From: Seison nebaliae
Taxonomy: Eukaryota > Rotifera > Pararotatoria > Seisonacea > Seisonidae
DNA: 50,626 bases
Direction: 5' to 3'
Assembly (NCBI GenBank): GCA_023231475.1
Contig: JALJEE010002538.1
Coordinates: 1 to 50,626 of the forward strand
Shown here piece by piece: positions 13,278-49,268 of the stretch (position 1 is its first letter; each line of letters opens with the position of its first letter). Position numbers and translations under genes: made by a program. The notes beneath the pieces are model-generated. The model did no database searches. It saw only the letters and a list, made by a program, of their open reading frames with translations, and had not been told where the DNA came from.

Positions 13278-16200
13278 TTAAGCTACGTTAAATCCAGTAT
13301 CGTAATTGGCTTCAATAGCGTAATCGAACAGTTCACCGAAATCTTCAGATTTCATGACGATTTCGGGAATGTCGACGGAGGAGAAACATGTGTGAAACAT
13401 GAAGCCGTTGTCAGCGCCTTTGTCGACAACGTTGAAACGAATCCGATCGGCTGTTTGGAACCCGCCGGCTGGTATAAATTGGACTCCCTTAATAACCGAC
13501 ACGAATCGATAAATTGCGTCCGAATCTTTCTTCAATATATACTCCTCCATTTTCTTTATGTAAACTTCTTCTTTTAACGAAGCGAAATTGATAGAAATGA
13601 GGAATTCTTCCGCCGTAATCTCTCGTTGTGGACTGAGAATTTGCTGATGAATGACAATTCGTTTGGAATTTTTTTTAATTTGAAAAAAAATTGAATGAGA
13701 GAAAAAAAGGGAATGACCAACACAAAGTTCAATTTCGTCAATATTCGTTAACATGGCTCTGGTAACACAAGCCGTGAAACCGGCATGGAATTTTTGGTGC
13801 ATTCTCGGAAAAGCACCAGTAGCGACTATAATGGCCAGATCTCTATTTTGAATGAGAAATTTAAATTTCAAATAATGAGAGGGAAATAATAAACTTTAGA
13901 ATGAAATTCTCCAACTCTTCGTACGAGTGAACTGGAATTTCGAAAGCGACTCCCCTTGTCAATAGTCGTCGTTGCTCCGCACTGAAGGTGTCGAACGATT
14001 CGGTAGTGTTATTTATCAGATATTCACGTTCGTCCTCCAGATCTATTTCTCCTAATCGATTTGAATGAGATTAGTTTGTGAAAAAATTTGAAAATTTTAA
14101 AAACTCAATTCCGCGAGATAAAGTCTCAATTCGATGTAGTTATTAGGAAAGAATTTTGCGATTTCTTCTCTGATAGCGTCCGTTTCTTCGGGACTCGCCG
14201 TTTGCAATGCCTCTTTTTTCGATTCACAAAGTTCCTTAAACTCTTTTCCTGCTACGGCATTATCTCTCATCTCACCCATCATGTAATCGACGGTGGCGCT
14301 TTGATATGGCATGTCGGCCATGGTTTCAGGAATGTCGCTGGTAATTCCAAATTGGGGATCATAAAAAAGTCCGCTGAATTTTTCAAAAATTTCAAATTAT
14401 CATACGAATGGAAGAAAGAAGATATTAACAGAATGGAAATTAAATCCTGATACGTTTTGAGAGGGAATGAACTGATAAGATCTCGATAATCGATCGATTC
14501 GTTCAGAACACAATATCTCAGAAATAACGGATGTAATTTGAAAGGTAAAAGAATTCGATGTAGAAGACACTAAAAAGAAAAAATGAAAAGCCTAAAAAAA
14601 ATTGAAAAATAAAGTGAAACATATCCGATATAGCGACCCATTGCCTCCCAGAAAAAGTCGAGATCTCTATCAGCCATCGTTAAATTGAAATCATAACTGG
14701 GTAAATAAAATCCGCCCTTCGTTTTCATGAACGGTCCCGTCACGGTATTTTCTAACTGTCGTCCGAATTTACTAAAAGTGTCGTTGAATACACCACCATA
14801 GTCTTCGGCTGGTGTATTTGAATTGATGATGAATCGTCGTCTTAAATTGTAGACGTCAATTCCCATGAAAACTCGAATCATCTCGCCGGGTATATTGTCC
14901 AGATCCATTTTAATTATGTAATAGGAATCGGCAATTCGCCGAGTATAACGAGTGACACTGAGCTCGTGTTGATTCTGATAGAATGCTCGTTGGGAGATCG
15001 TCGGCCATTGTTGCACATTCACATTGGCCAATTCCAATCGTTTCGAATTCAAATGTGCAGGAATACGATATCTCGAATCCAACATATCCGAATAGAAAGG
15101 AAGATTATTGTGATCCAGGAACGTTTTATATCCCGGATATAATTCACCTGTGAAATGAGCATGACTATCCACAAAATCATGATAATATAGAAGAGATAAA
15201 TGAAAATGAAACGGTGTTATTCGCGGATCAACTGCCATCACATGTCCACTATATTTGTTGATATAATGTACCGAATTTCCTACGGCACATTTCACTAACA
15301 AAATAGGGGGGAAATGAAGAAAGAGAGATATGTTAATGGAAACTATAATTATTCGGTTCAACGTCAAATCTCATGATTTCAAACGAACCATATTTCATAA
15401 TTTCTTTCTTCCTCATATCGTGCTAATTTAATGATATTATTATTAAATTTTAATAAATTTTAATAAAATCTAATTATAAAAATAACCAGAGCAATTAAAA
15501 TAATTTCTTTTTGAAGTTGACTCGTATTTTCAGTAACTCCAAAAATCGGATTTCCCGTTGACAATCTATATTTTTCACTGATGTAATTTATTCGGTTATT
15601 TTGCACGTCGATTTGGACGTTCCAATCGCCGCCCAATCCTCGATATTGACTGCCTTCGATGGCGTTGTACATTTGGAAGTCGCCAACGATCTTATTGCGG
15701 AAAACGGCGAGTTGACTGTAGATGATCTCGTCTTTGGATTCGGTGGGTACGTATGTGGGATCTAATCTCCCTTCCATCAATCTGATTAAAAATGAAGAAA
15801 TTTTTAAAAAATTCAAATTTAACCCCGGCAATGCTACTTGGTCCGGTCTTTCAATACTTTTACTGAGATGTTTGAATAAAGCATTCATCATCTCAGCTTG
15901 TGGTTGATAGATGGCACTATTGACTTCGGCATTCGTTTGAAAGAAAGCATAAATGTTATTAACTATAGAAATTATTGAAAAATATTATTTCTCAAAATTT
16001 TTTAATTAACATGGCGCATTATCATCTCGATTTACTGTTTTCATTTGTAGCAATATGTCTCCCATATTAATCACGGGTAAATCGACGGTGGATATGTCAA
16101 CGAAATCTTTCACTAACCACAACTCACTCTGCGAAGTTAACAGATTGGGATTCCTGGCATATTTATAAATGTCCCGATATTGTTCGTATGTCAAAACGGG

Positions 16201-17016: not shown

Positions 17017-19357
17017 CTATTTGTCTCCTTTCTTATCACATTTATTTTTTTCAGAACTCGTCGATTCTTCTTTCGTCTTATTCCAATTTTTCAATCCTTC
17101 AGGTATCGTCGTATCTTCATCCATCGATCCCGTTCCCTCCACGAATTCTTCATAAGTCGATTTCTCAACAAACGGTCGTTTTCCCAACAACTCCACCATA
17201 TCCTCCTTCTTCAACACCTCACTTTTCAACAATCGTTCAGCGACCTATAGAAAAAATTTTAAAAAAAAATTTTTTGGAAAGAAATTTTTTGATGGAAATT
17301 TAAATGGAATAAACTTTAATAATATCATCGCGATGTTTCTCTAATAATTCTCTTGTGGTATTTTCAGCTCGTTCGATGAGATTTCTCGCCTCGTCATCGA
17401 TGGTAGCGGCGGTTTTCTCCGAATATGGTTTATCGAAAACCATTTCGCCAGGTTGTGGTTGTTGGAAGGACAACGGTCCGACTTTCGACGACATTCCATA
17501 ATTGACGATTTGTGAGTAGGCACTTTGAGTGACTTTCTGAAGATCGTCTTGAGCGCCCGTCGTCAATTCGTTGAAGAACATCAATTCCGATATTCGACCA
17601 CCTAAAGTCATACACATTCGATGGAATAATTGATTTTGAGAATAAAGAAATTGTTCTCGAGGCAGATATTGTGCATATCCCAAACCACGTCCTCGTGGAA
17701 TTATCGAAACTTTTAATAAGGGATCGGCATATTTCAAATTCCATCCAGCCACCGCATGACCCGCTTCATGATAAGCCACTTTTTTCTTTTCTTCCGGTTG
17801 GAGGACTTGAGTCTTTTTTTCTAATCCTGCAATGACACGTTCAATCGCCATCTCGAAATGTTTCCATTCCACAAAGTCACTCAATTGTCTCGCCGCTATT
17901 AATGCGGCTTCATTACAAACATTCGCAACATCAGCACCAGAAAATCCCGGTGTCAAAGCCGACAATTTTTTCGCCCATTCTTTCTTCTCATCGATCTTTT
18001 CGTCACTTATTAAATTCATTCGTAAAGGTGTCAAATGAACGCGGAAGACAGATGCACGTCCTTTAATGTCTGGTAATCCGACGAAAATTTGACGATCAAA
18101 TCGACCCGGACGTAAAAGTGCAGGATCTAAAATATCCGAACGATTCGTCGCTGCTAAAACGATAATTCCACTTTGTTGACGGAAACCGTCCAATTCCACT
18201 AATAATTGATTCAAAGTATTTTCTTGTTCACTTTGACCACCAATATTTCTACCACCACGTTTCCTTCCGATGGCGTCAATCTCGTCAATAAACAGAATAC
18301 AAGGTGCTCGTTTTCGAGCTTGTTCAAACATGTCACGAACTCTTGACGGTCCAACACCCACAAACATCTCCAAAAATTCCGATCCACTCACTGTTATAAA
18401 TGGAACATTCGCTTCTCCTGCCGTGGCTTTTGCTAACAAAGTTTTTCCAGTTCCTGGTGGTCCGGTAAGAAGAGCTCCTTTTGGTATTTTCGCTCCAATT
18501 TTCGTATATTGTTCGGGATGTTTTAAAAAATTGACGAATTCCATTATCTCCAATTTAGCCTCTTCACAACCTGCCACGTCTTTAAATGTCACTCCGACAT
18601 TCTCAGAAACAATTCTTGCTTTGGAACTTCCCATACCGAAAATTCCACCAGGACCTCCTCCAATTCCTGAACTACCACCACCTCCTGATTTTCCACCCAT
18701 CATCATCGAACCAGCACGTCTCATGAACCAGAAAATGAGGACGAATGGAAGAATCCAACCGAGAACGGATAAGATGGTGGACATGTCGGCAGATGAACGA
18801 TAAATGATTGGAATCCGTTTCGACGGTTCCACATTCCTCTCATCCTCCAATCGCTCAAGACTACGTTCTAAACTCTCAACACTACCGATATTGAACCAGA
18901 TGATTCGAGAGGATGCTTGAGAACCATTCTTCATTCGAAGACGACAATATTTTTTATTAACCACCTCCAATTGATCGACATTGGCATAATAATCTGAGAC
19001 GAATTGTTGCCAAGTAATCTCATCATATAATTGATTATAAGTAACGTAGAAGAGGGCGAGAGAAGAGAAAGCGATAAAAGCATAAAACGATTTCATATCC
19101 ATCTTCTCAGGATTATTTCGATCAGATTTCTTCTCATTATTCTCTTCGAATTTCTTCTTGTCATTTTGAACGGTTTTCATCAATTGTTCCAGAAATGTTT
19201 TCATATTTTGTTCAGGTGGTCTCGATTCATCTTTATTCTTCTTCTCATTATAGAGAAGTGAAGATATAGATAATGGTCGAATCATCACAGTCTCGTGATT
19301 GAAACGCCATCTCAATATTCGGTGAATCGATTTGCTTTTAGTCACCAATCGATTCAT
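17017..19357 (-). CDS. Afg3l2: Mitochondrial m-AAA protease subunit AFG3L2
   Basis: Two exons (17315-19357 and 17017-17244) give 756 residues. This is the hexameric inner-membrane ATP-dependent zinc protease facing the matrix, which degrades misfolded membrane proteins and processes precursors. A basic N-terminal targeting sequence ([19 protein letters not shown]) precedes two transmembrane helices (about 90-107 and 194-212) flanking an intermembrane-space domain. A Gly-rich linker (220-243), Walker A GPPGTGKT (299-306), Walker [11 protein letters not shown] (353-362) and the arginine-finger region RPGRFDRQ follow. The metalloprotease motif is HEAGH (530-534), with the downstream TGAQDDL. The second exon supplies the conserved tail with ELLGKRPF and [10 protein letters not shown], which identifies AFG3L2 rather than paraplegin. 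The start is the ATG at 19355-19357. All catalytic residues are present. Confidence 0.96.
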
Positions 19358-19888: not shown

Positions 19889-22542
19889 TTATTGATGAGA
19901 ATCTGATTGTTGTTGTTGTTGTTGTTGTGGCTCTTGTTTCGTGTAAAGTTCATTATTGACGTTCGTGGACGTGGAGGAAAAGATCGATGGGAAATTCTGA
20001 TTTTGTGGGAAGGAATATTGCATGAGATCTATTTAATTAAAGAGAGAAAAGAAATGAATTTAAATTAAGAAAAAATAAATAAGAGAAACCATAACGATTA
20101 TTGAACTCGGAATTGATTGAATATGAATCAGCATTATTCTGTAACGATTGTTGTTGTTGTTGTTGTTGATTAGTTTGTGATGATTCTATAGAATTATTCT
20201 TGTCATTATCCAATACCGTCGACGATGACGACACAATTTGTTGTTGTTGTTGTTGTTGCTGATTTGATTGTAAATGTTGTTGTTGTTGTTGCTGTTGTAT
20301 CATCATTGCCATTAATGGATTATTTGAATTAAGAAATGATGTTTGATCATAATGTTGTTGTTGTTGATTGTGGAGAAGTTGTTGTTGTTGTTGTTGTTGT
20401 TGTTGTTCATTATTCAATTGAGAATAAACATCATCTGAAAAAAAAGTAAGGAGTAATATATTAGAGAGAGACAGATAATGAAGAAGAGAAAAAAAAACAA
20501 TTTTCATTTTCATTTTCCGTTTTTAATTGCATATTATCTCGAAGTGCCATAGCCATATATTGTTGGAAATTTTGTTGATATAATAATTGATCGATATAAG
20601 GAGATTTATTAACAATATCCGAATAGAAATTTGCATCAACAACTGCAGCAGCAGCTGCTACCGCTGCCGGAAAGAATGGTTGTTGTTGTTGTTGTTGTTG
20701 ATCGCCTGTCAACAATTGAGAATTTGTATCGGATATACTATTGTTATTGTTGTTGGTGGGAGTGGTTGTGGGAGTAATGGAAGTGATAGATGAATCATTC
20801 GTATTTGTTAGAAGAGATTGTGGATTGGAAAAATTATGAAAATCATTTCCACTCCCAAAATTTGTGGCAGCGGCAAAATTGGGAAATAACATTTGATGCA
20901 AATTATGTTGTTGTTGTTGTTGTTGTAATTGTTGAAGATGATGTTGTGAATTAGTCGTCGACGAATTATTCAAATGAGACGACGATGTTGTTGTAGTTGT
21001 TGTTGTGTTGATTGTTCCACTTTTTTGTTCGTCGATAACGAGGACGGATCGATCGACAGGAGTAAAATTTGAAATTATAAACATCACTTCATCATTGAAT
21101 GGATTAGTGAAGGCATAACTTTGAATTTTCATTGGTAACCAACACGATCCACCTTCCACACATTGTGTACTTGGTGAATTATTTTGTTGTTGTTGTTGTT
21201 GACGATAACGTTTACAAACATTTTCATTAATACATAATAATCGACATGAATAATTCGTTGTAGTTTTATTGACGAAAGATTGTTCTAATTGTTTCGCCAT
21301 TTCCGATCGATCATCTGGATGAATTAGATCCAATAATTCTTTTCCTAAACTCTCACGTGGTTCTAGACCGAGAATAGAAGTTGATCTCTGATCGACAAAT
21401 GTCAATCGACCATCAATTGAACTTCTCACACAAAACTCGCTCGGATCTCCTTTCAAATCTGAAACATTTGGCAATGCCGCTACTTGTAATCGACCGATAG
21501 CTACCAAACAACAAACATGTTGATTTGTTTCATTCGTCGTTCCATTTCCACTCGACGTCGATTTATTCGTCTCTTTCTTATTAAAATTTTTCGATGCTGA
21601 TGATACTGGCCAATTTTTCGTATATCCCGTTATATGTACCACTGCATATGAATTTTTTGAATCATGTTGTTGTTGTTGTTGTTGTTGATGATGAATTTCC
21701 GTTTGATGTTCCGTATCACCAAGTGGAGTTCGATTTCGTTCACGATAAATTGTCGGTGTCATTCCATAACAATAAGCGATTTGTGGATCGGAATTTGGTG
21801 GTGGTGACAAATTTCCCATTTTCAAACGACAAACGAAATTCCGTCGACTTCCCATACAAATTTTCATTGAAGACGAATGTGCTTCTTTTTTTACCGTTCC
21901 TGATTTCATATCCAACACACGTCCTTGACAATTATTCGATGAATTATTATTCTGATTTTGATTGTTGTTGTTATTGTTGCTGTTGTTGGTGAGTGCGTCA
22001 TGACAAAATTGTTCACGAACTTTCTCTCGATCTTTCGGATGAATTAATTGGAAGAAATTTGACGAATACCATTCTGATGGTGCTATATTCAATACTGCCA
22101 TAACGGCATCACTCACATATCGAATGTTTCCTGTTTCACATTCCGTCACAAAAAGGAAACCATCTGCTGCTTCCAATAAAAGATGTTTCAATTCTAAATC
22201 TGTCAAAAATGATGGTTTATATCCTGCCGAATCGTGACTTGATGACGATGTATTCGTTCCACTCGATGATGACGTTCCAACACTATTCGAACAATGATTT
22301 AATTGTTGTCTCAACGCTTTCATATGAGACGAAGCCATTCGAAGAATTGTTAATTTGTCCGGTTTCCTTGGCAACTGGGAACAAGCGGGCACCATATCAC
22401 AAAGTTCGTTGAAGAATCGGGCCATTTTAACGCGTCGTCGTCTTTCGATTTCGCAGTGCGACTCTCGTGCCTGTTTCTCTTTTTCATGTTCTGCATTCTC
22501 CGTCGTCGAATCGACGGACTGTGGTTGTATCATCGTCTTCAT
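19889..22542 (-). CDS. tgo: bHLH-PAS transcription factor, ARNT/Tango orthologue
   Basis: Exons 20499-22542, 20090-20434 and 19889-20028 join in phase (842 residues from the first ATG, MKTMIQPQ). ARNT/Tango is the general partner of bHLH-PAS proteins such as Single-minded, Trachealess, Similar/HIF and Ss/AhR. It binds the CACGTG/ACGTG half-site. The basic region and helix-loop-helix (about 26-78) contain ESHCEIERRRRVKMARFF and KPDKLTILRMASSHMKAL; the KPDKLTILRMA form marks ARNT rather than BMAL. PAS-A starts SFLTDLELKHLLLEAADGFL, and PAS-B contains SSIDGRLTFVDQRSTSILGL. The C-terminal activation region is rich in Asn and Gln with many CAA-encoded Gln runs. PAS-A is interrupted by Asn-rich and Gln-rich inserts. 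A frame continues upstream of the ATG (NYRHLD), so a short 5' exon may add residues. Confidence 0.93.
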
Positions 22543-22750
22543 GTCCAAGTGACGATAATTCAAAATTTAAAAATTTGACTTTTTTTTTTGGGAGAATTAA
22601 ATAAATTAATTCAATTTATAGTTTATCATTTCACTATTTATTTCTTCGTTCCCATTAGATAATGTTGTCGATTGAGAGAAGTCAAAGAATTTCCTAATAA
22701 TTCGTTGAACACAAGAAAGAAATCTCTTTTGAAATGATAATGGACTTCCC

Positions 22751-29926: not shown

Positions 29927-30973
29927 ATGATATGTTATTATTAATGTTTCTTCTCTCAATCACTTTCAATTCTTCCATTCTCAGCCAAACGACGATTGAA
30001 GTTTCGTGGGGAGATGCAATTGCATAGTCGTTATCTTCGTCGATGTCTTACGATGTTACCGTCCGATTATCAGTCGATGGATATGCAACGAGTGACGATC
30101 GCCTTATTCTGTGTTGGTGGTTGTGCTATTTTAGAGAAAGAAGATCCGGCATTTGGTATGAAATCTTCCGAGAAAGCAGCTACCATCAAATGGCTTCTAT
30201 CGTTACAAACCGTTTCCGGTGGTTTTCGACCGACGGCCACTTTTTCCGGAATCCGTCACGATTTCGATCAAGCACATGCCAGTATGACATACGCCGCTCT
30301 CAGCATTTTCCAAATCCTTCATTCTGATCAACCGTTGACAGGAGTCGACGTTTCTGGAGTGAAACATTCGTTGAAGAATTTACAAATGAATGACGGATCG
30401 TTTCGAGCTAATCGTTTCAGTGAATATGATATGAGATTTGTCTATTGTGTCTGTGCAATTTGTCATTACATCGAAGATTATTCCACCATCGATAAAGACG
30501 AAGTGGCGAAATATGTTGAGTCATGTCAAAGTTACGAAGGAGGAATTGGACAACAACCGATGGGCGAAGCACACGCCGGTTCCACATTTTGTGGTGTAGC
30601 TGCTCTTCATTTAATCGGTCGATTGAATTCTGTTTTTCCACATCATTCTCGAGAGAGGAGGAATCTTGTCCGATGGTTAATTCATCTACAACATTCAGGA
30701 TTTCGAGGGAGAACCAACAAGGCATGGGACACATGTTACTCATTTTGGGTTGTGGCGTCGTTAAGTATTTTGGGACAGATAAATTTGATTGATCGAGAGA
30801 AAAATATCGAATATGTCCGAGAAACGAGATCGGCATTGAGTGGAGGATTTGGGAAGTTTCCCGATTCATCGTCTGATCCTTATCATACATATTTCGCTTT
30901 AGCCGCATTGTCATTGGTGAGACATATCGATTGTCGAATCACTCCCTCACTCATTCTGCCCATTCTCAAATAA
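29927..30973 (+). CDS. Pggt1b: Geranylgeranyltransferase type I beta subunit
   Basis: Model: 29927-29933 joined to 29985-30973 (331 residues). The first exon is only 7 coding nt (ATG ATA T), and the intron is 51 nt with acceptor TTCTCAG. The enzyme heterodimerises with the FNTA alpha subunit and transfers geranylgeranyl to CaaX cysteines of Rho, Rac and gamma subunits. The alpha-alpha toroid repeats are clear: TIKWLLSLQTVSGGF, SLKNLQMNDGSF, YVESCQSYEGGIGQ, SGFRGRTNKAWDTCYSFW and ALSGGFGKFPD. The zinc ligands Asp and Cys (WDTC) and His (DPYHTYF) are present. If the 7-nt exon is wrong, the alternative start is the internal Met in RGEMQLHSRYL, which would lose part of the first helix. AATAAA lies at 31005-31010. 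Confidence 0.9.
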
Positions 30974-31366: not shown

Positions 31367-34300
31367 CTATCTGAAGTATTTGGCGGAATCGGTTTCTTGT
31401 AGTTTGGTGGTAGGACCACAAGTTTTCGTCAGATCAAACGTAGGCGGTGCTGTGACGGGAGTCGATGGGCGTGGACGTTTTCCTTTCACTCCTCCCGGAT
31501 CGGACGTTGTCTCCAACACATTATTATTCTGGAAGAAAGTGGCAATTGGACTGGATAATTTCGGTTCGGTATCCGTTTGGCCTAATTGTCGATGGTTTAT
31601 TTCGTCGATATCGCGTTGACTGGGATTAGAGGATTTGAATGAACTTTCCGGTGCGACATTTAGTGGAATGGGTGAAGGAACTACTTCTTCTTCTTTCGTC
31701 AATACGGCACTGATTCGGGGACTGGTGTGAATACTTGGTTCTCCTCCTGTTTGTTCATCGATTATCGGTCGTGCATGAGATGTGGTCGGTTTGAGATTAA
31801 TAGAATCATTCTTATGTTCCTCATCGCTCAAAATTCCCGTTGCATTTAAAGTGTTTTGCATTGGATCGTCCGTATCAGAATCAGACGCGAGAATTTGATC
31901 GATCATCATATTAACTTTCTCATTGGACGGGTCTTTGGGAGCTAACGTCATATCTCCACTGGGCATTGAGGGATCATTATGAATAGATTTCTGAGGTGAT
32001 CGTCTCGAACTAGTTGATCCGGTGCCCATCGTCAAACTATGGAATGAATGTTCAGGTTGACGGTTGTGGTCATGATGGAGCATATGGAGTGCTTGAGATC
32101 GTTGTCGTGTCGTTTCCACTTCGTTGTACATATCAGCATATTCTTCCAATGAACCGGCTAAGATGGCTGCATTAGCTACATAACTTATCGGTTTCTCATA
32201 ATCGTCCTGAGCGAGTATTCTACGAGCTAGGACGTCGTCGAATCCCAACCGTTGTAAGAGCGGGTATGTCATTTCACCTTCCACTTTCGCCAAATGGTTT
32301 CGATTTCTCAATGAAATCATCACCAATTGACGATTGGTGAGACGAGGCTCTGGCAAACTGCGACCACAATTCTGCCAATGCATCAATAAGTCCAATTCGC
32401 TCTGGAGATTGTTAACTACCCGTCGCGAGAACCATACATCGCCATTGATCTTAATTCCGTTGTTGAAGAGTGTTCGATTGAATTCAGCATAGTTTATCAA
32501 ATTGTCCGGGTTGGCACACATTCGTTCCATATAGGCCGAGATGATCTGCCGATAAATGATCATTATCTCACCAGCATCAGTACCTTGTTCGCGAATGACG
32601 GAACCGTTCGCTCGAACGTAATTGATACAGTTGTTATTGTGCAAATGTGCGATATATTTCAGTTTGGGATATTTCAATCGTATCGTCAATTTAACAAATG
32701 CTTCATGGATATGTGGTTGTCGAATATCGAATTCATTACAAACATTTGGTGGCACCAAATATCTTCGATCGGCGTCCAAATGAACCGTTTCGAAACCTTT
32801 AAATAAATTATCCAGAAATATAAGCACCCCAGTATTGGTGACCAGGGCCGTGTTTCCGGCCACATTCGTCACATTCGTCGAACAACAATCAATATCATAT
32901 AACTGATTTCCTGAATTGAGAACGGGAGGATAAGTCGTGGGAGGTCGACCACCATCTGGTTTGTACACGTAACTTTGACAGATTGCTATCCATTCGGATG
33001 GACAACAAACATCCGATTTACCAGATTCAATCGACGCCCAATCCACCCCGTCCAAGAAGTCCAACATTTTTATACTCTCATAATCCTTCACTCGAGTGGT
33101 GATGTCCCAATTCGTCATCGATGTAATACAGGTAATCAGTTCGGGACTGAGTGGCGTATCATACACGTCAGGTTCTTGTTGAGATGCCGTTATTTCCCGA
33201 TAACGATCCCACGGCGCGTAAATACTATAATTGTACAAGGGTAAAATGTACATCATTTGGTGGACGGTTGCCCCGAGAGCATAATAATCTCTCGCCTCAT
33301 CGAAACCACCATAAATTTCCGGCCATTTTCCTTCCGGTGCGATGAAACGTGGTGTTCCTTGATCAGCTGATCTTCCCGGTCTGAGTTTCGACTTTTCGAT
33401 GACTAAGCCATAATCAGTTATTTTGATGAGACCATTACCATAAACTAATATGTTTCCGGTTTTGAAATCCGAATGAATGATTCCTAACGAATGCAATTCC
33501 TTCAATCCATACATCATCATTGCCATCACATGTTTGACGCAGACCTCGGGTATACGCTAGAGAAAAATCGGAATGATTAAAAGAGGTTTTTTGGAGAAAA
33601 TGGGACAAACTCTCAATTTACTGGTAATATCATAACCACTATCCATTTCGGAATAGACGGAATGGAATCGTATTACCTCCAACAAATCGCCACACTCTGC
33701 CAATTCACAAGCAATAAACATATAACAATCGTCATGGTCCATCCATAATGGCACTGAGTTGTAGTGGAGGTTACTTCCCGCCCTTAATTTCAGTAAGGTG
33801 TTCCGTTCGGCAAAGATTTTATCTCTCGTGTGCACATAATGGTCGTTGAGACGTTCAAAAATCGTTCGAACATAAGACACCTGATTGAAGCTTTTGAGGA
33901 ATTTATGTTTCGGAACAATTTTCAATACCACCATATCCTCCCGGCCTTTATCTATGAGAGGAATGAGATGAAATTAATTCAATAAAGTAAACCGTTTATG
34001 GTTTTGGCTAGTACCACTGTTCCATATCCGCCACTACTCAAATATCCACAAACTCCCAACAAATTATGTTTTAATAGGACTTCGTTTTTCGGCTGAGAAT
34101 TTCTACCACATGGATTTAGTGGCGTCAAATTGATCATATGAGACATGGCACGAATATCTGTAATGTTTCTCAATTGTCGATATACTCGACCGCCTTTCCT
34201 TATTCTTTTTAGCATAGTTTCCTCTCGACAAACCATCCTGAACTTCCGCCCACACAGTGCCATATGAGCGTTGAGGATATAAGTTTCGAAAAAAGCCGGA

Positions 34301-36105
34301 AATAGTCGTCGCCATCGTGGATGATGGAAACTTGGTGTAGCTGTGATATGATAACCTTGAGAGAGGACTAACATTCGATGTACGTATAACTGTTCATTAG
34401 GCGGCTGTTCTTTTGAATAAAAAACCGCCTCCCAATCATTAAGCCAACCTTTTTCGATTCCACCTCTTGGCATTCGGTTCGTGTCAATCAATGCGTCAAA
34501 AAAGTAGCACCGATTGTGTCTATTTATCTTTTCAATATAACAGTCTTTGGCAACCGGAGGTTCCATTCGACCCAGTCGCGGATCTATATTTACATCATTC
34601 AAATGCAAATCTGGAGCAATATCAATAACATGAAAACGGTTCCGTGCAAACAACACATTCACATTCTTCAAATTTACATAATCGTAATAGCCATTTCGAC
34701 ATGAGTCTGGATTATCATCTGGTTGCATTACAATTCTTGACGCCGGTTCATTGTTGTCATGTAGGGACGACGTATGGACTAAGCGAGGAATTCGCGAATT
34801 TTCTTTCTCCATCGTCTGAATGTGTTTCATGTATACATCGAGTTTGGAGAAAACGAGTTCTCGTTTCAAATGACCTGGTGCCACTTCCACATGTCTCTTC
34901 AATTCATCGACATGCTGATAATATGGTGGTCTGGGAACGGCCGGATCATGATAAGGTAGACATCGACCACTTCGATTTCGATATCCTACAAATTCATTTC
35001 TGAATGGCACGTGACCTGCCCCTTGGGGATTATAGACATCTGAAATTTGATTATAAAGTTCCCGTTTGAGAACCGGACTTCGTTTGGTAGTTGTTAGCAT
35101 TTGGGGTGATTTCGGTTTATCAGCAGTCGGTTCTTCCGTGATGCCTTGTAACATTTGTTCGAGTTCGTCCATATTAAACAAATCCTCTCCAAATTGCGCA
35201 CCTCCACCTTCCCGTTGTTTCCGAAGGTTGTCCATGAATTCCTGCACATTCACTTCTTCCTGTTGTTTCGTTTCTTCTCCACTCGAATCGATCAGCAACG
35301 TTTTATCCGCTTTATTTTTGACGGGCGCCAATAATTCTTCCTGGAGTTTTCGTTGATCTTCCGTCAAAAATTGCGGTTGAACGAAATCACCAGGTGCCCG
35401 CGACGGAGGCTCATCGTCTGGAAATTGAAAATTGGCGATATCTGGAGCAATCAATCCAAGTCCACCAGGTGGTGGTTGAGGTTCCGCCGCTGCAGGTGGT
35501 TGTGGTGGTGGCGGTTGAGTTGTGGTTGTTGTAGTTGGTCGTCCAAAACCGATCGGTTCAAGCGGTTGGAAAGCTGGTCTTTGTTGTGCTTGAAGATTGT
35601 AAGCAGGTTGTGGATAAATTCTCGGATCATATCGACCTTGTTCTTGTCGTTCATATCCGGTGCGCATCGTCCCTGATGGGAATATACCACGTGACATTGG
35701 ATAGCTTGGTTGATTTGGGATATTTTGCATTCGCATATCTCTTCCATAATCTCCACCATATGGTGGTCCTCGTGATGTTGAAACGAAGCCCACACCACGA
35801 TGTCCAGCCATATGTGGTTGTTGTTGATGTGGATAACCGCCGAATTGTCGATCGGTTGATTGTCCTTGTTGATTGTAGTATTGTGGGGGTGGTTGATGCG
35901 GATCGAACATTCGATGTTCCAAATGTTGATTTCTAGCCTGCCAATTTGATGGTTGGCCTGCACTTCCGATCATTCCGAATTGGGAACGTCCTGGTGGCAT
36001 CGGTTGAGGAAGTTCATAGTCGTTTGGTCGCCTGAAAGGACCAGGTTGATCAAAATAACCTGTCCTGTCTGATCGACCCTGTCCGTACCTCGGATCCATA
36101 TACAA
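31367..36105 (-). CDS. Large protein kinase with novel flanking domains (putatively active)
   Basis: Three exons (33993-36105, 33611-33951, 31367-33556) join in phase, giving 1,547 residues. Residues 1-230 are Pro/Gln/Gly-rich and disordered, followed by an acidic helical segment. An uncharacterised region (about 380-685) precedes a central kinase domain. This shows a Gly loop (GYLSSGGYGTVVLAKTI, ending near 703), the VAIK-type lysine in VVLKIV, and a C-helix Glu in FAERNTLLKL. The catalytic loop is HSDFKTGN, with catalytic Asp, Lys and Asn kept and Arg of HRD replaced by Ser. DFG appears as DYG, and APE as APEG. The hallmarks predict activity on Ser/Thr, but no standard kinase group is obvious. 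A C-terminal domain (about 1,000-1,250), shared with the neighbouring pseudokinase, is followed by a disordered Ser/Pro tail. The gene lies head-to-tail with that paralogue, 311 bp downstream of it. Confidence 0.8.
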
Positions 36106-36416
36106 GTCAGTGGAAATTAAATTAAAAAAAAGAAAACAAATTCAAATAGGAAAAAATAGGAGTTAACTTAATTCTCGTTTGCTTTCATCATTCATTTCGA
36201 GTTAGTAATATAACGAAAACGTTGTGTAACTACATATTTCTCTTTTCAATTTTCCACTTTTCAAACTGCTCAACAGGAAAACAACTTTTCAAACAGCTAA
36301 ACAGCAAAACAACTTTTCGGCGTGTTAATTTATTGTTGAGGAAGAAATAGTTTAGAAGGAAATCAAATACATTTAAGAAGAATTATTATTAAATGATCTA
36401 GAGTACAATGAAGTGT
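36106..36416. other. Spacer between the paired kinase genes
   Basis: 311 bp holding the 3' UTR of the pseudokinase gene and the promoter region of the kinase gene. It contains a local duplication of CAACTTTTC-A-ACAGC(T)-AAACAG words near 36275-36315. No coding frame. Confidence 0.5.
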
Positions 36417-39141
36417 TTATAATTCACAAATAAAGTGTGGCAGTCCGTTGGGATCCACAATTCCGCTACTTATCGTTTTCTCATAATCCGATTCGCTTGG
36501 AAGATGTTTGCAGAATGTCTCGAAATCCTTAGTCACCTTCTCCTTCATCAAATCACCGCCATAACGACAATAATGTCGGATGAATCGTTCCAATTCCGAT
36601 GTCATCGGTCGACAATATCGTAGCCATAAATTCTTATCGTTCAAATAAATGTAATTGACATTCGGTTGAATCGGGTACGAATATCCCAACCGAATTTGTC
36701 TTACCGTATTGACGTGAACGTGATCCAATCCCTCGTTGTATTGAGGACACATCACTTTATTGTCCGTCCGTTCAATGGACAACGTTCGGGGGAAAAGGAA
36801 ATTCTTTTTATCGTAATAAACTAACTTATCCGTCACTTCGTAGTCGGGATTGTTGAGTTGATAGACAGTTGGTGCTTGTTCGTTCGAATAGATAACATCG
36901 GAATAATTCAGGTTTTTACAAATAATCTGCGGGAAATCGGTTTTGTGAGTTCCTTCGGGATCCAACTGATTATAATCATATCGAAGTCGTGAACATAATT
37001 TGAGATAGCCTTCTGGTGCCGCTTCAACATATTGGCCCGACTGTAAGAGAGCCCATTTAGTGCCAGAAAACGTACTAAATGTCTTAAGCTTATCAAAACT
37101 ATAAATAAATAATTAAAATTTCATATAAAATTTCAAATAGAATTTCAAATGGAAATGACTAACCAGCACAGACGTTCCATGGGATGAGGTTTACACAGTA
37201 ACTGAATTAGAGTCTTCACACTGTTCGGTACGAACATTCCTGGTAAGTTGAAATCGAGAGCCTCCAGATAGAGGAAAACCTCGTCCCAGGGCGCCAATAA
37301 TTCGGGATTGAACAAAGTCGTATAGAAGATTTGTGAGAGAATAATTCCCAAATTATAGAAATCGTTCAAATAATTATATCCACCAAAAATCGTTGTGAAA
37401 TGTTTCTCGGCCGATCTGTTGGCTAATGTGCCGGTGGCATAAATCGATCGGAATTTTATGGGTCGTGACGAATGGAAATTACTCAAACAAATCTTTCCGC
37501 TCGAATAAACCAGAATATCAGACAAGCTCAAATCGTTGTGACAGACATCGAAGGAATGAAGTTGCTCGAGACCGACGACTATCATGGAGAAAATATGCGT
37601 TAGATATTCGGTATTGACGAGGACGTTGAAATCCCAAAGATTCTTTATTGGACACCCCCCATTATTCTTCCGATAATTTATGAGGAATTGGTGCAAATTG
37701 CCACAATCCGCCCACTCCAATGCGATGTATCGATATTTCCCATCACTATCTATCCATAACGGTTCCACCAAATACGGTGTCACTTTGTTCATACTCTTCA
37801 CCAAATTCTTCTCGTTGTGGTAGTAACAACATAATTTTTTCCATGCCGTCGGATTCTCCACCAATTTACTGGTACCATATCTGGTTCTGGCACTAGCCAG
37901 GAAACGTTCCTTCTTCTCCAATCGAATCATAATTGGAAAATATTCATTATCATAATTTGAGATCGTTCGACACAATATATAATATCCATAGGCGTTTTTA
38001 CTAAGAACGCCGTAAATGCCGAGAATGTTCTGGCGAACGAAAACGGTATTTCGATTGATGATATTATCATTGTTAGTGATGGAAGGAAAAAATGATTCGT
38101 CTAACACGTCCAACAATTTCAAGGCAATTCGACTTTGGGGTCGTTTACGACCGGCGAGGAATCGATTTCTTACAACGATCCTCACCACTTTCGGTGTTAT
38201 TAACGAGAAAACGAGTCGTTCAAGATCCGTCAGAAATTTGGAAGGATAATAAATGTTGACATTCGTATCGATATTCTTCGTCACATAGACGTTGATGGAA
38301 GTCTCAAGATGATTGGGCAATAAGAGCATTCGAGAAACTTTGGGAAATTTGGGTGGTATTTCAAAATGGAAATAACCAGCTCGCCACGGATGGACGTCGT
38401 TGTTGAAGAGACCTTGATAGGAATAAAGTTTTGGCGCTCCATAATAACAATCGAGGAAGTATTTCCGGTTATATTCATTGATCGGTTCGAATCGATCTTC
38501 AAATTTCGTATGTTCAATTTTTATGAATCTCTTTTTTCCCTTCCGACTACTCGTTGGTTTGTTCGTCGTTTGCACTTTGGCACATAGTGCGGGTGTTGTG
38601 CCACATTGTTCGGTTGGTGTGGGTTGAGTGTTTGTGTCGTTGGCGGAGGGACGTGGATATGTCAAAGGTACTGGCGATTCGTGACCAGCACCTGCTTGTT
38701 CTAATGTCTCTTTCCATTTCTTCATCTGGAATGGTGAGACGGCACATGGTCGTCTCTCCAGTTTCAACAAAGGAATGAATCGATGGAAATCGGATGAAAA
38801 CGGAGTATTGGGTAGTAATATGTTGAGTTGGTCGGAGGAATAATCGATCATCTCTTCCGGTGTCAAATAAGCCACATTGTCAGATAACGCTACACTTTTC
38901 GATTTAGTTTGTGAATTTAACGTTCTCTGTGTTCCTACGTTACGCGTGTTCGTCTGCAGGTTTTCCGCGCCAACATTGTCGCTCACAACTGGCGAAGGTT
39001 CGTTTATATTCAACGCCACTTCGTCATTTCTACCATTCTTTAATGGAGTGTCTTTAAAAGTGGTCGAATAACCGTTACTATTTAATAGCTTAGCCAGCTC
39101 GTCAGTGTTACCTCTATGAGCCGTAGTAGCTATTGCTCCTT
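36417..39141 (-). CDS. Pseudokinase paralogue of the adjacent kinase (5' exon unresolved)
   Basis: Two joined exons (37164-39141 and 36417-37098) give about 886 residues. The first begins in mid-codon after acceptor TTCTACAG, so a short 5' exon is missing. Kinase-fold landmarks align with the neighbour but are degraded. The Gly loop is GVLSKNAYGYYILCRTI, the VAIK lysine is Arg (PIMIRLEKK), and the catalytic loop is HNDLSLSDIL (Lys to Ser, Asn to Asp). DFG is NFH and APE is SAEK. Structural positions persist: FGGYNYLNDFYNLG against YGGFDEARDYYALG, and LLAPWDEV against YAPWDRY. The flanking regions also match: RMLLLPN against RMLVLSQ, and a C-terminal YPIQPNVNYIYL against YPKLKYIAHL. Loss of the metal-binding Asp and ATP lysine means it cannot be a normal kinase; an allosteric or scaffold role is inference. 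Confidence 0.75.
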
Positions 39142-40144
39142 CTGTAGAATGAAAGTTAAGGTGAATTTTCACACGAATCGTAAAGAACAACTTTTAGATT
39201 GCATATTAGATATAGTGCCCTCTCAAATAAAAGGAACAAGAGAAGAATAATAAACAGAACAAAATAGAAAAAAAACAAATAAATTGACTTTTTCGGTTTT
39301 ATTAATAACTTATGTTCATCATTTCTTTTTCTTATTTTTCCATTCGATTTTACCACAATCCACTCAAACTTCTTCCAAACATCGTTCTTCCAATTCCATT
39401 CCTTCTCCCAAAAATCTGCCTCCGAGCGACACATTCATTTAAAATGGAAACTTATTTAAATTTATGTAATACTTATTTCATATAATTAATACCAGTTTTT
39501 TTCTTCAAAAAACCGTTTGAAAAACTGAAGACAAATTCAAATTGTCACTTCGCTAATCCGTTTTTCCATTATCATTCTTTAACGTTAATTCAATCAATTT
39601 TCTACATTCCATCCCTTATTTCCCTTCGGAATTTTAGTTCGGTAGTTTCATAAAACAACAACAACAAAAACAATATTCAAATTGATCTTTTTATTATGAG
39701 GGATGATTGAAATTGAGAATTTGATTTTTTGTGTTTAATTTAAATTTTAATAAATAATGATCGATCGTGAAGTAACGTGAAGATGGTGAATATGAAAATC
39801 CGGTGGAAGAACCGTTGATACTAGAAAACCGTTTATGATGATTTTTCTTGCAAAAATTTTAATAGTCTTTATTGAATAGATTATGAAACTTTTTTGAATT
39901 TTATTATACTTTTTAAAAATGTAACACAAATGAAAAATGAGAGGAAATGAAATGAAAATATTTACAAACATAATTTAAATTGAATCGAAGTGACGAAATA
40001 AAAATAACAATAAAAGTTCATTAACAATTTTTCATTTGAGAGAGAAGACAATTTGAAAGTGAATTCTCGATTGGACAGGAAACTAACAATAGTTGTAAGA
40101 GAATAAAGGGAAATTATTTAAGAACAATATATATTTGATGCATT
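39142..40144. other. Intergenic region, probably with the missing pseudokinase 5' exon
   Basis: About 1 kb between the pseudokinase gene and the CLPTM1L stop. A frame at 39156-39434 (minus, 92 codons, with a hydrophobic FFFYFVLFIILLLFLLF segment) could belong to the pseudokinase transcript, but its donors do not match the required phase. The rest is AT-rich. Confidence 0.4.
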
Positions 40145-42171
40145 TTAATTTTTCTTCTTTTCTTCCAACGTTTGTTGTGGTTCTTCTTCTTTGTTCGATT
40201 TATCATTTGTGAACGATTGACCATATTCATTTACACGTTTCTTATCCGTATCGTAAATGCTGTTTATCATTTTATATCAATTTAAAGAGACAAGAAAGAA
40301 AGTGAACTAGTATTGGTAGAGGAAAATGACGAAAACGATATCGTCTCGGAAACATGCCAATCGATGTGACGTCGGCATGGATAATATAGTGGCATAGACA
40401 TCGTCGATAATCGTGTTGAACCCTTTATACAGGAACACTCGGATTGGTAGATGAGCAACAGATTTCAACTATCCCAAAATAAATATTTGAAAAATTAATT
40501 GAAAAGAAGAACTTTGTAATTCAAGAACACTTGTGGTAACATGAAGAGAAATCCGAAATAATACACCATATGTACCAGACTAGTCACTGTCCAAGAATAC
40601 CAACTAATTTGAATATAATTTAAGGATATATGGAAGATAATTTTAATAAGATTTTGAATATAATTTAAGGATAATTTTAAGAGTATTGTGAATATAATTT
40701 AAGGATAAGTAGAGGATAAAAATTTAAACGAAATACTCACCTTTTCTGTGGATAATAAAGTAAAGAATAAACTGCACTTCCAATGCACAGCGGAATGATG
40801 AGATAGAATAATTTGTTGATCATTTCCGAATCGAAATTTTCAGAAGCATTTTCCGCATTCGATTTCTCTCCCAACTGATCAATAGAAAATGATGATGATA
40901 AAGATGAAAAATAATTAAAGAAAACTTTCATATAGAAAAAGGGGAATTTGGATGATAATTTGAAGGAGATCTTCATCGCTTTCATCAACTTCCAAATCTC
41001 CACCACTATCCCAACGAACAAGGGAATGATGACCAGATATGACGACAACGAATCGATGAGATGGAGAAGAATGATCGTTTGACTGATGACACGCCAAATA
41101 ACTAGATAATTTTCGATTAGAAACGAGCAGATTTTCTCAACTAACTTGTTCGTAATGAAATTCCCACCATCGACGATTGATTCCTCCAATAATTTATATC
41201 GTTCTTGAATGCCAATACATCGAGTAACATCTACGAATATTTTCCATTAATTTGAAAATTTGCAGGAAAATAATTGAACATGTATAATCATAATTAGGAC
41301 GGAAATGAATAGGATGTAGACGTTGTTGAAGGTGAGAAGATCTCTCACTTCCTTCAGAGCGTCTTCCTTAATACCCAATTCCTTCATTGCCGGAATATTT
41401 GAGTCCATCGATGACCAGAATTCGAATTGTGGCACATTCATTCGACGGAAATGTAAAGTGAAATTAATTTGATTAGAATCTAAAATCTGAAAGAAAAAAA
41501 AAACCATCAAAAATTAATTAATGATGGAATTAGGATTAATGAGGAACTTGGAGATATGATGGATGATGACGGAAAATTTCCTTCTCAATAATCGGTAAAT
41601 ATTTACCAGATGAATCGATTTTCAAATGTGGATGAATGGAACGAGGAACGGCGGTTAGATCGATGACAAATTCAGGATTTGAAATGAATCGGAATGGAAT
41701 TTTATTCCAATAATGAGTGTAAATGACATCGGGCTCATTGAATGAATCGATCGTTTTCAATAGATTCTTCTTCTTCTTGATCAATTGATATTTGGAGAGA
41801 TCTAAATTGAAGTAAATTCGATCATGATAATCGCTCGGCGTTTTCAATTTATTTATCGTTCGTTTTTTTTTCATTTCGCTGAAACGTTTCTCTCTGAAAC
41901 ATTTCTTCATAAATTTCGGATAGAGACCACTCTCGTGCATGAACAGATGAAGATTAATCGTTCCATTCTCTCTAGAGATGTGGGAAATGTTTTTCTTTGT
42001 GAATTCTCTAAAATGATCAAAATTAAAAAAAAAACGGAAATGGAAAAATATGATTGGGAACAATAGAAAATCATTTTGTGACGAATTGAATATCTCCAAA
42101 TTCTTCATTATGATATCCGAGCAATTACAATCCTTACCGATCTTTGTTGAATGAGTAATACAACCAGATAA
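40145..42171 (-). CDS. Clptm1l: Cleft lip and palate transmembrane protein 1-like (N-terminus unresolved)
   Basis: Exons resolved from the 3' end: 40145-40259, 40308-40468, 40513-40603, 40741-41101, 41146-41230, 41280-41487, 41548-42007 and one further exon ending at 42171. CLPTM1L/CRR9 is an ER multi-pass protein related to CLPTM1. The human protein acts as a lipid scramblase for glucosaminyl-phosphatidylinositol in GPI-anchor synthesis. Visible hallmarks are the luminal part with RENGTINLHLFMHESG, FWSSMDSNIPAMKELGI, and LLDVLAFKNDINYW. The helical segments contain IPLFVGIVVEIWKLMKAMK and PLCIGSAVYSLLY, then FGFLFMLPQVFLNYK. The very conserved end has KSVAHLP, MPTSHRLACFRDDIVF and DKKRVNEYGQSF. 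Exon joins checked are in phase. The first exon(s), with the N-terminal membrane helix, could not be fixed. Confidence 0.93.
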
Positions 42172-42593: not shown

Positions 42594-43691
42594 TCATTCT
42601 TCGAATGTGATCTGTCCCGGACCTCCTTTATTCATCCATCGACGGAAAGTTTTATATTTACCACTTTGAATTAATTTCTGTTTATTTTTCTCTTCGTGTG
42701 ATTTGTGCCATTCTTCATGTACATCCGATTTCCATAATTCCAATTTAAAATATTGAAATTTGTCCTCTTTGCTAAATGCATCCCAGACACGTTGTGGGAT
42801 ATTGAGATGATTCCGAATCAACAAACTTTTCTCCTCCTCGTCCAATTCTCGTTTCAATATCAATCGACGATAATACCATCTGATGATCGAGTAGACGTAA
42901 AGTATGAAGATAAAGGGAAGATAGGCGAGTTGAACGAGCAAGAAATCCTTCCACGTCGGACGGAAGAGATTGTTATGTTTGAGGAATTCTTGACGGAAAA
43001 TTTCGTCATTCTCATTTAAATTTTCTCGAATCTCTTTCGAAATCTGATTAAATTGACTCATCAAATGAACTTTCTCTTCGACAATCACATACAAAATATG
43101 TTCCTCGTTGAATCGAGCGTCTTCTTTCGATAATTCTTTTCGTCGAATTTTCCGTCTGATATCGTCGTCATTAATGAGATTTAACTCCTTCGCTATTTGA
43201 CTGGCCACACGTCGATATTTCGGAACGGCCACCATTCCTTTGATTTTCAATCGATATCGATTCTTAATCAAATAAAAATGAATGACAGAAATACAAATCA
43301 ATGTTCCCACAATCACATATCGAATATCGACTTTTGGTGATAATCGTCGTTTGTAATATCGATAATAATGATAATAATATTCTTCCGGATTGTCCAACAT
43401 TTGATCATAATCAGCTCGTTGATCTTCGTCATTCAACACTTCATACGCCGTTGCTATCCGACGGAATTGGAGTGTCGCTTTCTCTTTATCTTCTTTCGTT
43501 CGGAATCGATCGGGATGCCATTTCTTTGCGAATTTCCTGTAAGCCTTTGCGATCTCCGAACGACTCGATTCACGTTTCAATTCGAGAATCTCATAACAAT
43601 TCTCCTCGCCACAATACAAGTCTTGAATGAAACATTCACTCCATATCACACAACACATGAAGAAGAGAAAAGTCAAGAGACAACTCTTCAT
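42594..43691 (-). CDS. Dnajc25: DnaJ homologue, subfamily C member 25
   Basis: Single exon, 365 residues. A signal peptide (1-20) is followed by a Cys-containing lead and a J domain (about 31-95) with the HPD motif at 59-61 (KKWHPDRF), which stimulates Hsp70 ATPase. The first membrane segment is at about 123-142 (RYVIVGTLICISVIHFYLI). A charged helical middle and a second membrane segment (about 245-270, LLVQLAYLPFIFILYVYSII) precede the family-typical C-terminus RRWMNKGGPGQITFEE. DNAJC25 is a membrane J protein of the secretory pathway. The start is the ATG at 43689-43691 and all key residues are intact. It lies upstream of CLPTM1L on the same strand, about 420 bp away. Confidence 0.9.
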   Translation of the reverse strand: MKSCLLTFLFFMCCVIWSECFIQDLYCGEENCYEILELKRESSRSEIAKAYRKFAKKWHPDRFRTKEDKEKATLQFRRIATAYEVLNDEDQRADYDQMLDNPEEYYYHYYRYYKRRLSPKVDIRYVIVGTLICISVIHFYLIKNRYRLKIKGMVAVPKYRRVASQIAKELNLINDDDIRRKIRRKELSKEDARFNEEHILYVIVEEKVHLMSQFNQISKEIRENLNENDEIFRQEFLKHNNLFRPTWKDFLLVQLAYLPFIFILYVYSIIRWYYRRLILKRELDEEEKSLLIRNHLNIPQRVWDAFSKEDKFQYFKLELWKSDVHEEWHKSHEEKNKQKLIQSGKYKTFRRWMNKGGPGQITFEE

Positions 43692-47495: not shown

Positions 47496-49268
47496 ATGAA
47501 AATGTTCAAGGTCAGGTGAGTGGAGGATGTCTGACGTAACGATGATAAAGTAATACGAAATAATTTGGCTATTTCTATTTATCTTATTTCAGCTGGTACG
47601 ATGTTTGCAATACTAAGTTAAGATTCTTAATTCGATTTTAATTTAAATTGTGTTTAAGGAAGATTCCGGTATCAATACATTGGACTATTCGTATTATTCC
47701 TGGTCTTCATCACACTCAATAGACGACACAAAAACCTGCTACATTTAGCTCAATATGGAGAGTCGTCATTGTCTCGAAAAATCATAAGGTCAAATCATAT
47801 CTCAGCGAGATTACACACGTTCGATTCGGTCGTTCACTGTTTCGACAAGTACATTTGGGAGACGAAAGAGGAATTATGTTTATATCAGACGGTTTTGGTG
47901 TCGAAGAGTTCGAAGCCATTTCGCCAAAAGAAATATTATTGTTCCATTCATATTTCCGAATTGAGTGCGACGTTTGTGACGACGGCGAACGTGGTCGTCA
48001 TTAAAGAACGGCCGTCACTATCCCGAGGAATCTATTCATTGGAATGTTATGTGAAATCGTTGAATTTTAAAAACATTTCCGCTTTGGACGTTCGACTCTT
48101 ATCAACGAGTTTCAATTCGAAAGACAGCAAATTACTCTTATTGGCGACGGATAATAATTTGACTGTTCGATGGTATCGGTCACCCAAAGAAGTTTTCATT
48201 TACGATACATGTTATTGTTCGGCACCTATCATGTTATTCGACGAGACGGATGTGGATGATCTTTATTCGCATATCTTCTATTATTTCCATTATAACGTCT
48301 CATTAATCGTCCTCCAATTCCACGACGAGGATGATAAACATATTAACGAAATTAAAAGTTTCATCTCCACCAATATGAATTCCCATCAAATTTTCGTCAT
48401 TCGTCGCATCTATTTGGGGAAATTGAGGAAACATATCGACCCTGATAAATTGATCATGTTCAATTCCTGTTTCCATCGATACAAATATCAATGCAAGTCC
48501 TTCATTTCTCATGATCCAGACGAAATTATCATACCATCGGAAGCGATGCGAACTCCAAATTTCAGTTTCAATTATTGGGATTTCGTCGTGGACACTTTCC
48601 GCAAAACCGGTTATCGACAGCGGAAAGCTGATCGTGGCTATTGCGCTTATTTCGATGCGAACGTCTTGTTAGACGAACGTGATACAAATAGTGTGATTTA
48701 TGCACTCAATTCCTGGTTTTCTAGTAGTATCAAATTACCATATATCAACGCTAAATTGGGGGGATGTTGCAACACCAGATTCCGTGTGATGGATACGAAC
48801 AATATCCGGAAATATGAGGACACATGTCGACATCATTACACGAATGTACTTAATTTAACGGCTCGTTCTACGGAAATGAGACAAAAGTTAACTTATCGTG
48901 GACGGCGATATGTGAGACCATTAGCATTCGAAATGGCTTTCGACGAATTTCAAAGGAAATATTTCTGCTTAACTCCTCTATTGCGCGGACTGGGAACACA
49001 TGATGGTATCGGTCAAAATCTTCATACATCATTCGACGATTACATCAAATTGAAATTACAATTTGAGAAATATATTTCCGATAACACTTATTCGGTCACG
49101 GTGCCAACTCAACACGGTTTAGTTCTGCATCATCGCATCTATTTAAAGGAGCACATTCTCGATGTGATAGCCAGCATGCCCGTATATCCGTGCAAGAGTC
49201 TTTATTATAATAGGGCCAATTCGATATTGGAAACATTTTGGAACAACGTGACAACCGACAATCGCTAA
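47496..49268 (+). CDS. Glycosyltransferase family 92, type II Golgi enzyme
   Basis: Exon 1 (47496-47515, MKMFKV) joins in phase across a 147-nt intron to 47663-49268, giving 541 residues. The join creates a classic type II signal anchor (about residues 9-24, YQYIGLFVLFLVFITL) after a short basic cytoplasmic tail. The catalytic part has the GT92/DUF23 order: a central segment PKEVFIYDTCYC, a block around YFHYNVSLIVLQFHD, then LIMFNSCFHRYKYQCKSF followed by HDPDEIIIP, the likely metal- and sugar-nucleotide-binding DxD-like site. Cysteines and His-rich stretches (CRHHYTN, LVLHHRIYLKEH) follow. In nematodes and insects this family includes galactosyltransferases that add beta-1,4-galactose to core fucose; the substrate here is unknown. 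AATAAA lies at 49394-49399. Confidence 0.8.

What the first reader, a model, noticed from the sequence alone, without database searches (positions are those of the whole stretch)
31367..39141. Tandem kinase-pseudokinase pair with shared, unnamed flanking domains
Two adjacent same-strand genes share a kinase fold and conserved regions on both sides, but are very divergent. The downstream copy (31367-36105) keeps the ATP lysine, C-helix Glu, catalytic Asp, Lys and Asn, and a DYG metal site. The upstream copy (36417-39141) has Lys to Arg, Lys to Ser and Asn to Asp in the catalytic loop, and DFG to NFH. Landmarks such as APWD and the GG(F/Y) block persist. Retention of fold and flanks with loss of catalysis suggests a regulator/enzyme pair, as in known pseudokinase partnerships. 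I know no family with this layout: a kinase domain in the middle of about 1,550 residues, between a novel N-region and a novel C-domain.
Basis: partly seen in the sequence, partly recalled or inferred. Interest (0 to 1): 0.8.

Follow-up and report, generated by a model that had tools for sequence, protein, structure and literature searches.

The report
Rotifer kinase family with dead members
Two neighbouring genes of the tiny rotifer Seison nebaliae encode one intact protein kinase and one relative whose active site is broken, and they belong to a small, so far unnamed gene family in which the other readable copies have lost key catalytic residues too.

Summary
The window is from Seison nebaliae. 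Gene B (36099-31367, three exons, 1545 aa) is identical to NCBI's SNEBB_008896. Gene A (about 39190-36417) is a divergent paralogue. Pfam calls both kinases. B keeps 6 of 6 catalytic residues scored; A keeps 1 of 6 but all 5 structural ones. A's kinase region folds as a kinase, though on an alignment containing kinases.
The genome has at least three more members on other contigs (C, D, fragment E) and a looser relative F. D shares two intron sites and phases with B and one with A. B is more like C than like A. Of five copies with a readable active site, only B is intact.
The family looks AGC-derived, but all five lack the HRD arginine and no AGC C-tail profile matches. The N-region has no Pfam match, and limited searches found no relative outside Seison. 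A regulator/enzyme partnership is possible but unsupported.

The parts
33993..36099 (-). Gene B (SNEBB_008896) exon 1: Pro/Gln-rich N-terminus, N-region, kinase glycine loop
33611..33951 (-). Gene B exon 2: ATP lysine, C helix, hinge
   Evidence: matches NCBI model
31367..33556 (-). Gene B exon 3: catalytic loop to kinase end, AGC-type extension, C-region, low-complexity tail, stop
33952..33992 (-). Gene B intron 1, 41 nt, phase 1; same site and phase as intron 1 of member D
33557..33610 (-). Gene B intron 2, 54 nt, phase 0; same site and phase as intron 2 of member D
34063..34542 (-). N-region of gene B shared with A and C, no Pfam match
33038..33058 (-). FLDGVDW, AGC-type extension after helix I in gene B
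   Evidence: profile alignment
32789..32809 (-). NLFKGFE, possible AGC hydrophobic motif (by eye; not supported by profile searches)
   Evidence: against:
37164..39190 (-). Gene A exon (open frame; true start not resolved): N-region and most of the pseudokinase domain
37099..37163 (-). Gene A intron, 65 nt, phase 2; same site and phase in members D and E
36417..37098 (-). Gene A last exon: end of kinase domain, extension and C-region, stop
38027..38500 (-). N-region of gene A shared with B (z 7.9) and weakly with C (z 3.5, 3 of 500 shuffles reach it)
36329..36334 (-). AATAAA between A's stop and B's start; possible separate 3' end of A (the motif is common: 178 in the window against 127 expected)

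Best explanation
The two genes are neighbouring members of a small gene family, so far seen only in Seison, derived from an AGC-type serine/threonine kinase. B is the one readable member with an intact active site and most likely phosphorylates protein substrates as a non-RD kinase (HSD instead of HRD, no threonine at the usual AGC activation-loop place), so it probably does not need activation-loop phosphorylation and is instead controlled through its flanking regions. A has lost ATP-handling and metal-binding residues but keeps the residues that hold the kinase fold, and has been kept open by selection; it most likely works without catalysis, as a binding or competing protein through the shared N-region and kinase surface. 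Shown: gene structures, homology, residue loss and retention, extra members, shared introns. Inferred: activity of B, non-catalytic role of A, control by the flanks. That A acts on B in particular is not shown.
For: Kinase matches for A, B, C. AGC relatives: B's kinase fragment finds PKC iota first, the A/B/C profile finds only AGC kinases (PKA, MSK, RSK) in the 60 rows shown of 1531, F finds PKC theta, SGK1 and S6K first. Extra members C, D, E, F. Tree: A, B, C, D one clade, support 100/98, F next at 85/93. Shared intron sites and phases between D and B (two) and D, E and A (one). Catalytic against structural residues. Neutral-substitution simulation of A: at 0.05 changes per base 0 of 300 runs stay free of stops, while A has none in 885 codons and lies on a protein branch of 1.89 changes per column.
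Against: A alone does not find AGC kinases clearly: its best solved match is CTD kinase subunit alpha at 4.1e-5, PKA lower; C's 11 matches mix PKA (5 rows, first) with CaMKK1/2, MAP3K2 and GCN2; B's list also holds MAP4K and PAK kinases. The nearest structures of A's model are tyrosine kinases by Foldseek and Nek7, PKR, PTK6 and Aurora by VIA-align, not AGC. Pfam's AGC C-terminal domain does not match, and the tail profile finds no AGC chain among 12 hits up to E 10. B's first glycine of the loop is Ser. Seison-only status rests on searches limited by shared 5-residue words and length; the first returned no record for A or C although their letters were in the query, so its negatives are weak. 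No expression data were seen. D and E were spliced by me, not from transcripts.
Confidence: 0.6

Rival explanations
1. A and B form a dedicated enzyme/regulator pair: the pseudokinase A binds B through the shared regions and switches it on or off, as Fam20A is known to do for Fam20C (that mechanism is recalled).
For: Adjacent same-strand genes, shared N-region and kinase fold, loss of catalysis in one with retention of the fold. A's nearest row by tree path is B. B lacks the usual AGC activation-loop threonine, so another switch is plausible.
Against: Adjacency is what duplication leaves behind; the family has other members elsewhere, the readable ones also degenerate; B is closer to C than to A; no evidence of complex or co-expression.
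Confidence: 0.22
2. A is still an enzyme: it binds ATP and transfers phosphate or another group by unusual residues.
For: A keeps the HxD aspartate, the C-helix glutamate and a basic residue (Arg) in place of the ATP lysine; precedents of active 'pseudokinases' are recalled, not tested.
Against: Loss of the metal-binding Asn and DFG Asp together, of Lys168 and of two of the three loop glycines.
Confidence: 0.08
3. A is a decaying gene without function.
For: Longest end branch in the tree, 1.89 changes per column; only 1 of 6 catalytic residues kept.
Against: 885 codons without a stop and a usable intron, where 0 of 300 simulated neutral copies stay open at 0.05 changes per base; 5 of 5 structural residues kept.
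Confidence: 0.03
4. The family is a plain lineage-specific duplication with no common theme: each member took an unrelated role and B is an ordinary kinase with an odd flank.
For: Low identities throughout (19.4-32.6% in kinase columns among A to F); C-regions differ in length and mostly do not align.
Against: Motifs persist despite catalytic loss: APWD in A, B, C, E and F (IPWS in D), PLWxD in A, B, C and D; N-region shared by A, B and C.
Confidence: 0.25

Closest known systems
AGC kinases (PKA, PKC iota/theta, SGK1, RSK/MSK)
   Same: Best solved relatives by sequence of B, F and the A/B/C profile; extension FFxxxDW after helix I.
   Different: No HRD Arg in any of the five readable members, no threonine at the usual activation-loop place in A, B, C, D (F keeps one, by eye), no Pfam match of the AGC C-terminal domain, new N-region, inserts in the kinase domain.
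Fam20A/Fam20C (kinase and pseudokinase paralogues; PMC4421793, start of abstract seen)
   Same: Paralogous enzyme and catalytically poor partner as a model for A and B (the activating role of Fam20A is recalled).
   Different: Fam20C is a Golgi kinase (abstract); partnership of A and B is not shown and their location was not tested.
Lineage-specific kinase/pseudokinase families such as rhoptry kinases (PMC3682881, start of abstract seen)
   Same: An expanded family in one lineage with kinases and pseudokinases.
   Different: Rhoptry kinases are secreted by a protozoan parasite (abstract); A and B were not tested for signal peptides and belong to an epizoic animal.
Plant tandem kinase-pseudokinases (PMC6170490, start of abstract seen)
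   Same: Kinase and pseudokinase side by side.
   Different: There both lie in one polypeptide (recalled); here two genes, each with its own stop and start, with a possible poly(A) signal between.

Membership tests
Protein kinase superfamily (PF00069) | Profile match above the curated cut-off | tested here: met
   B 78.5 bits, C 64.9, A 36.5; cut-off 31.7
Catalytically competent protein kinase | K72, D166, K168, N171, D184, G186 (PKA numbering, recalled) | tested here: met
   For B only: 6 of 6. A 1 of 6, C 5 of 6, D 3 of 6, F 4 of 6 (the last glycine of A and C is a gap and reads His by eye). Activity itself not testable here
Pseudokinase (gene A) | Kinase fold kept while catalytic motifs are lost | tested here: met
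AGC kinase group | Nearest relatives are AGC kinases | tested here: met
   B (with some MAP4K and PAK rows), profile, F; A alone and C alone do not show it clearly, nor do the structure matches of A
AGC kinase group | AGC C-terminal domain (PF00433) with hydrophobic motif | tested here: inconclusive
   No Pfam match and no AGC chain with the tail profile; DNxFxx(F/W) or close to it in B, C, D, E by eye
AGC kinase group | HRD arginine | tested here: not met
   HND, HSD, HND, HGN, HGD in A, B, C, D, F
AGC kinase group | Activation-loop threonine three residues before the conserved Gly | tested here: not met
   Y, A, K, I in A, B, C, D; F has Thr by eye
Kinase/pseudokinase regulatory pair | Physical interaction and effect on activity | not testable with these tools
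   needs protein experiments

The most novel reading that the evidence does not exclude
In a reduced rotifer genome a single intact non-RD, AGC-derived kinase (B) is surrounded by a set of damaged paralogues (A, C, D and perhaps E and F) that share its docking region and act as interchangeable regulators or decoys, a lineage-specific signalling module with a new N-terminal domain.
Probability: 0.15. Interest if true: 0.6.

Novelty: new variant of a known kind. Interest (0 to 1): 0.36.

Why it matters
If the family is real in this sense, it offers a small natural series of one intact kinase and several differently damaged copies with shared introns and flanks, in which one can ask what a kinase fold is kept for once catalysis is gone. 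It also adds an unnamed N-region next to an animal kinase. It does not overturn anything: lineage-specific kinase families with dead members are well known.

Tried and rejected
First guess of the host as an eriophyoid mite (small AT-rich genome): dropped after named Seison nebaliae; the mite paper PMC7738191 (start of abstract, three passages) is therefore irrelevant.

Fold of B residues 500-1304 on a four-row alignment failed: mean pLDDT 34.2, pTM 0.24; nothing is concluded from it, so the folds of the N- and C-regions remain unknown. Polo-box, RGS-type and MORN readings of the C-region were considered: Pfam gave nothing for B's, A's and C's C-regions, and one of five tails matched MORN at E 0.2; taken as chance. 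PDB hits of the tail profile to hyaluronate lyase (10 of 12 rows, best E 0.0046) are taken as chance. Viral origin: a scan of viral contigs found 178 pattern matches and no relative by tblastn. NCBIfam gave only prokaryotic kinase models far below their cut-offs. Retrocopy origin of intronless C: no long poly-A tract seen in the 301 bases printed at its 3' end, and the neighbouring ORF that looked like a reverse transcriptase by eye has no Pfam match; left open. AU tests of five groupings within the family (A+B, B+C, A+B+C, B+D, A+D) reject none, p 0.188-0.272. No AGC kinase is among the rows shown for A's structure model (50 of 1972 and 50 of 1000); a family not listed is not excluded. Papers: Seison with kinase gives 6 papers, 5 listed, rotifer with kinome 5; the listed titles and starts of abstracts do not concern this family, and 'kinase' and 'SNEBB' occur 0 times in the main text of the genome paper PMC8351084 (12 passages on other terms seen).
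Full report
Where it is. The open frames, short introns and Pfam content suggest an animal genome. The GGTase-I beta gene at 29996-30973 matches SNEBB_008895 of Seison nebaliae at 100% over its 325 aa; Seison is a rotifer, epizoic on crustaceans (genome paper PMC8351084, start of abstract, passages). The genome held is 36.0 Mb in 846 contigs. The pair lies between a CLPTM1 gene and GGTase-I beta.

The genes. Gene B runs 36099-31367 with introns 33992-33952 and 33610-33557; my model of 1545 aa is identical to NCBI's SNEBB_008896. Gene A has one intron, 37163-37099, and stops at 36417; its first exon is open from 39190 but its true start is not settled. An AATAAA lies between A's stop and B's start, but the motif is common in the window.

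The observation. Pfam's kinase model reaches 78.5 bits in B and 36.5 in A against a cut-off of 31.7. On the alignment, B keeps K72, D166, K168, N171, D184 and G186 (PKA numbers, recalled); A keeps D166 alone, with R, S, D, N and (by eye) H at the others, while E91, E208, D220, G225 and R280 are kept in both. The N-regions of A and B score z 7.9 over shuffles, B and C 13.9, A and C 3.5 (3 of 500 reach it). After the kinase, A and B score z 8.7, B and C 7.5, A and C 2.9 (9 of 500); beyond the first 45 residues A and B 3.0 (6 of 500), B and C 3.7 (2 of 500), and A and C nothing (474 of 500). So the N-region is shared, and the C-region is shared mainly next to the kinase.

Not only a pair. Searching the genome with A, B and C gave 40, 3, 6 and 48 matches, many of them ordinary kinases. 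Besides C I fetched six further regions and compared them with A, B and C; the rest were not looked at. C is a single frame of 909 aa on contig 524. D on contig 211 has four GT-AG introns of 52-65 nt in the part modelled. E is a fragment at the end of contig 545 with APWD and the extension. F on contig 633, 434 aa, has APWD but is otherwise an AGC-like kinase. The other three regions (contigs 55, 624, 267) look like general kinases (by eye). Queries with F (13 tries) and D (one) did not complete by the machine, so the count is a lower bound.

Introns tie the members together. D's introns 1 and 2 have the site and phase of B's introns 1 and 2: phase 1 in the codon ten residues after the last loop glycine, and phase 0 with the conserved His of the helix E region as the ninth residue after it. 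D's fourth intron has the site and phase (phase 2, in the codon three residues after the helix-I Arg) of A's intron, and E shows the same one. I read these by eye from aligned sequence. C has none of them. In the tree of nine rows (A-D, F and four AGC kinases; E left out as a fragment) A, B, C and D form a clade with support 100/98, and F joins at 85/93; the order within is open, with A on the longest end branch (1.89) and B on the shortest of the four (0.73); A's nearest row by path is B. Identity in kinase columns: B-C 32.6%, B-D 28.8%, A-B 25.6%. None of five groupings tested is rejected, A+B among them (p 0.203).

Loss of catalysis is the rule. Of five members with a readable active site, B has 6 of 6 catalytic residues, C 5 (DFH), F 4, D 3 and A 1; structural residues are 5 of 5 in A, B and F and 4 of 5 in C and D (E covers three of the structural sites and no catalytic one, and keeps all three). 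C has also lost all three loop glycines, A and D two, B and F one. All five lack the Arg of HRD. The AGC activation-loop threonine is not at its usual place in A, B, C or D; F has one by eye. A non-RD kinase usually does not need loop phosphorylation (recalled), which is why I think B is controlled otherwise.

Selection on A. A's coding sequence (885 codons used) has no stop. Random substitution at 0.05 per base leaves 0 of 300 copies open, at 0.02 per base 8 of 300; A's protein branch (1.89 changes per column) implies far more change than that. So A is kept as a protein.

What it is related to. B's kinase fragment finds PKC iota first (1.4e-12; MAP4K and PAK rows are also in the list); the A/B/C profile finds PKA, MSK and RSK in all 60 rows shown of 1531; F finds PKC theta (6.7e-22). 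A alone and C alone give mixed lists. The extension FLDGVDW of B fits the AGC extension, best seen beside FFDGVDW of P0001. A hydrophobic-motif-like DNxFxx(F/W) recurs, with small shifts, in B, C, D and E, but no profile search supports it. In 5.8 billion proteins the A/B/C profile found 11 kinases covering 16-51% of the query, and B's residues 480-1350 found B itself and one general kinase. These searches need shared 5-residue words and have length limits, and the first returned no record for A or C although their letters were in the query, so 'Seison only' is provisional. A viral-contig scan found no relative.

How it probably works. B as an active kinase and A as a non-catalytic relative kept for binding is the most economical reading; that A regulates B is possible (0.22) but adjacency is also what duplication leaves. 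The finding is a decent new example of a known theme, with an unnamed N-region as its most open part.

Noticed in passing
40737-42108 (-): CLPTM1 gene directly upstream of gene A (Pfam PF05602).
   Followed up: yes
42594-43691 (-): DnaJ-domain protein (PF00226); another DnaJ gene lies near member C on contig 524 (L018:8190-8924), probably coincidence.
   Followed up: partly
29996-30973 (+): Geranylgeranyltransferase I beta subunit in one open frame, SNEBB_008895, the match used to name the species.
   Followed up: yes
20461-22563 (-): bHLH-PAS protein in one long open frame.
   Followed up: no
17300-19357 (-): FtsH-type AAA protease (AAA and M41 domains) in one open frame of 685 aa.
   Followed up: no
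13278-13871 (-) and 47769-49268 (+): Weak matches below cut-off to a HECT domain and to glycosyltransferase family 92.
   Followed up: no
L018:6675-7298 (+): Open frame just 3' of intronless member C looks like a piece of a reverse transcriptase by eye; no Pfam match.
   Followed up: partly
window 1-50626: AATAAA occurs 178 times against 127 expected from shuffles (0 of 100 shuffles reach it).
   Followed up: no
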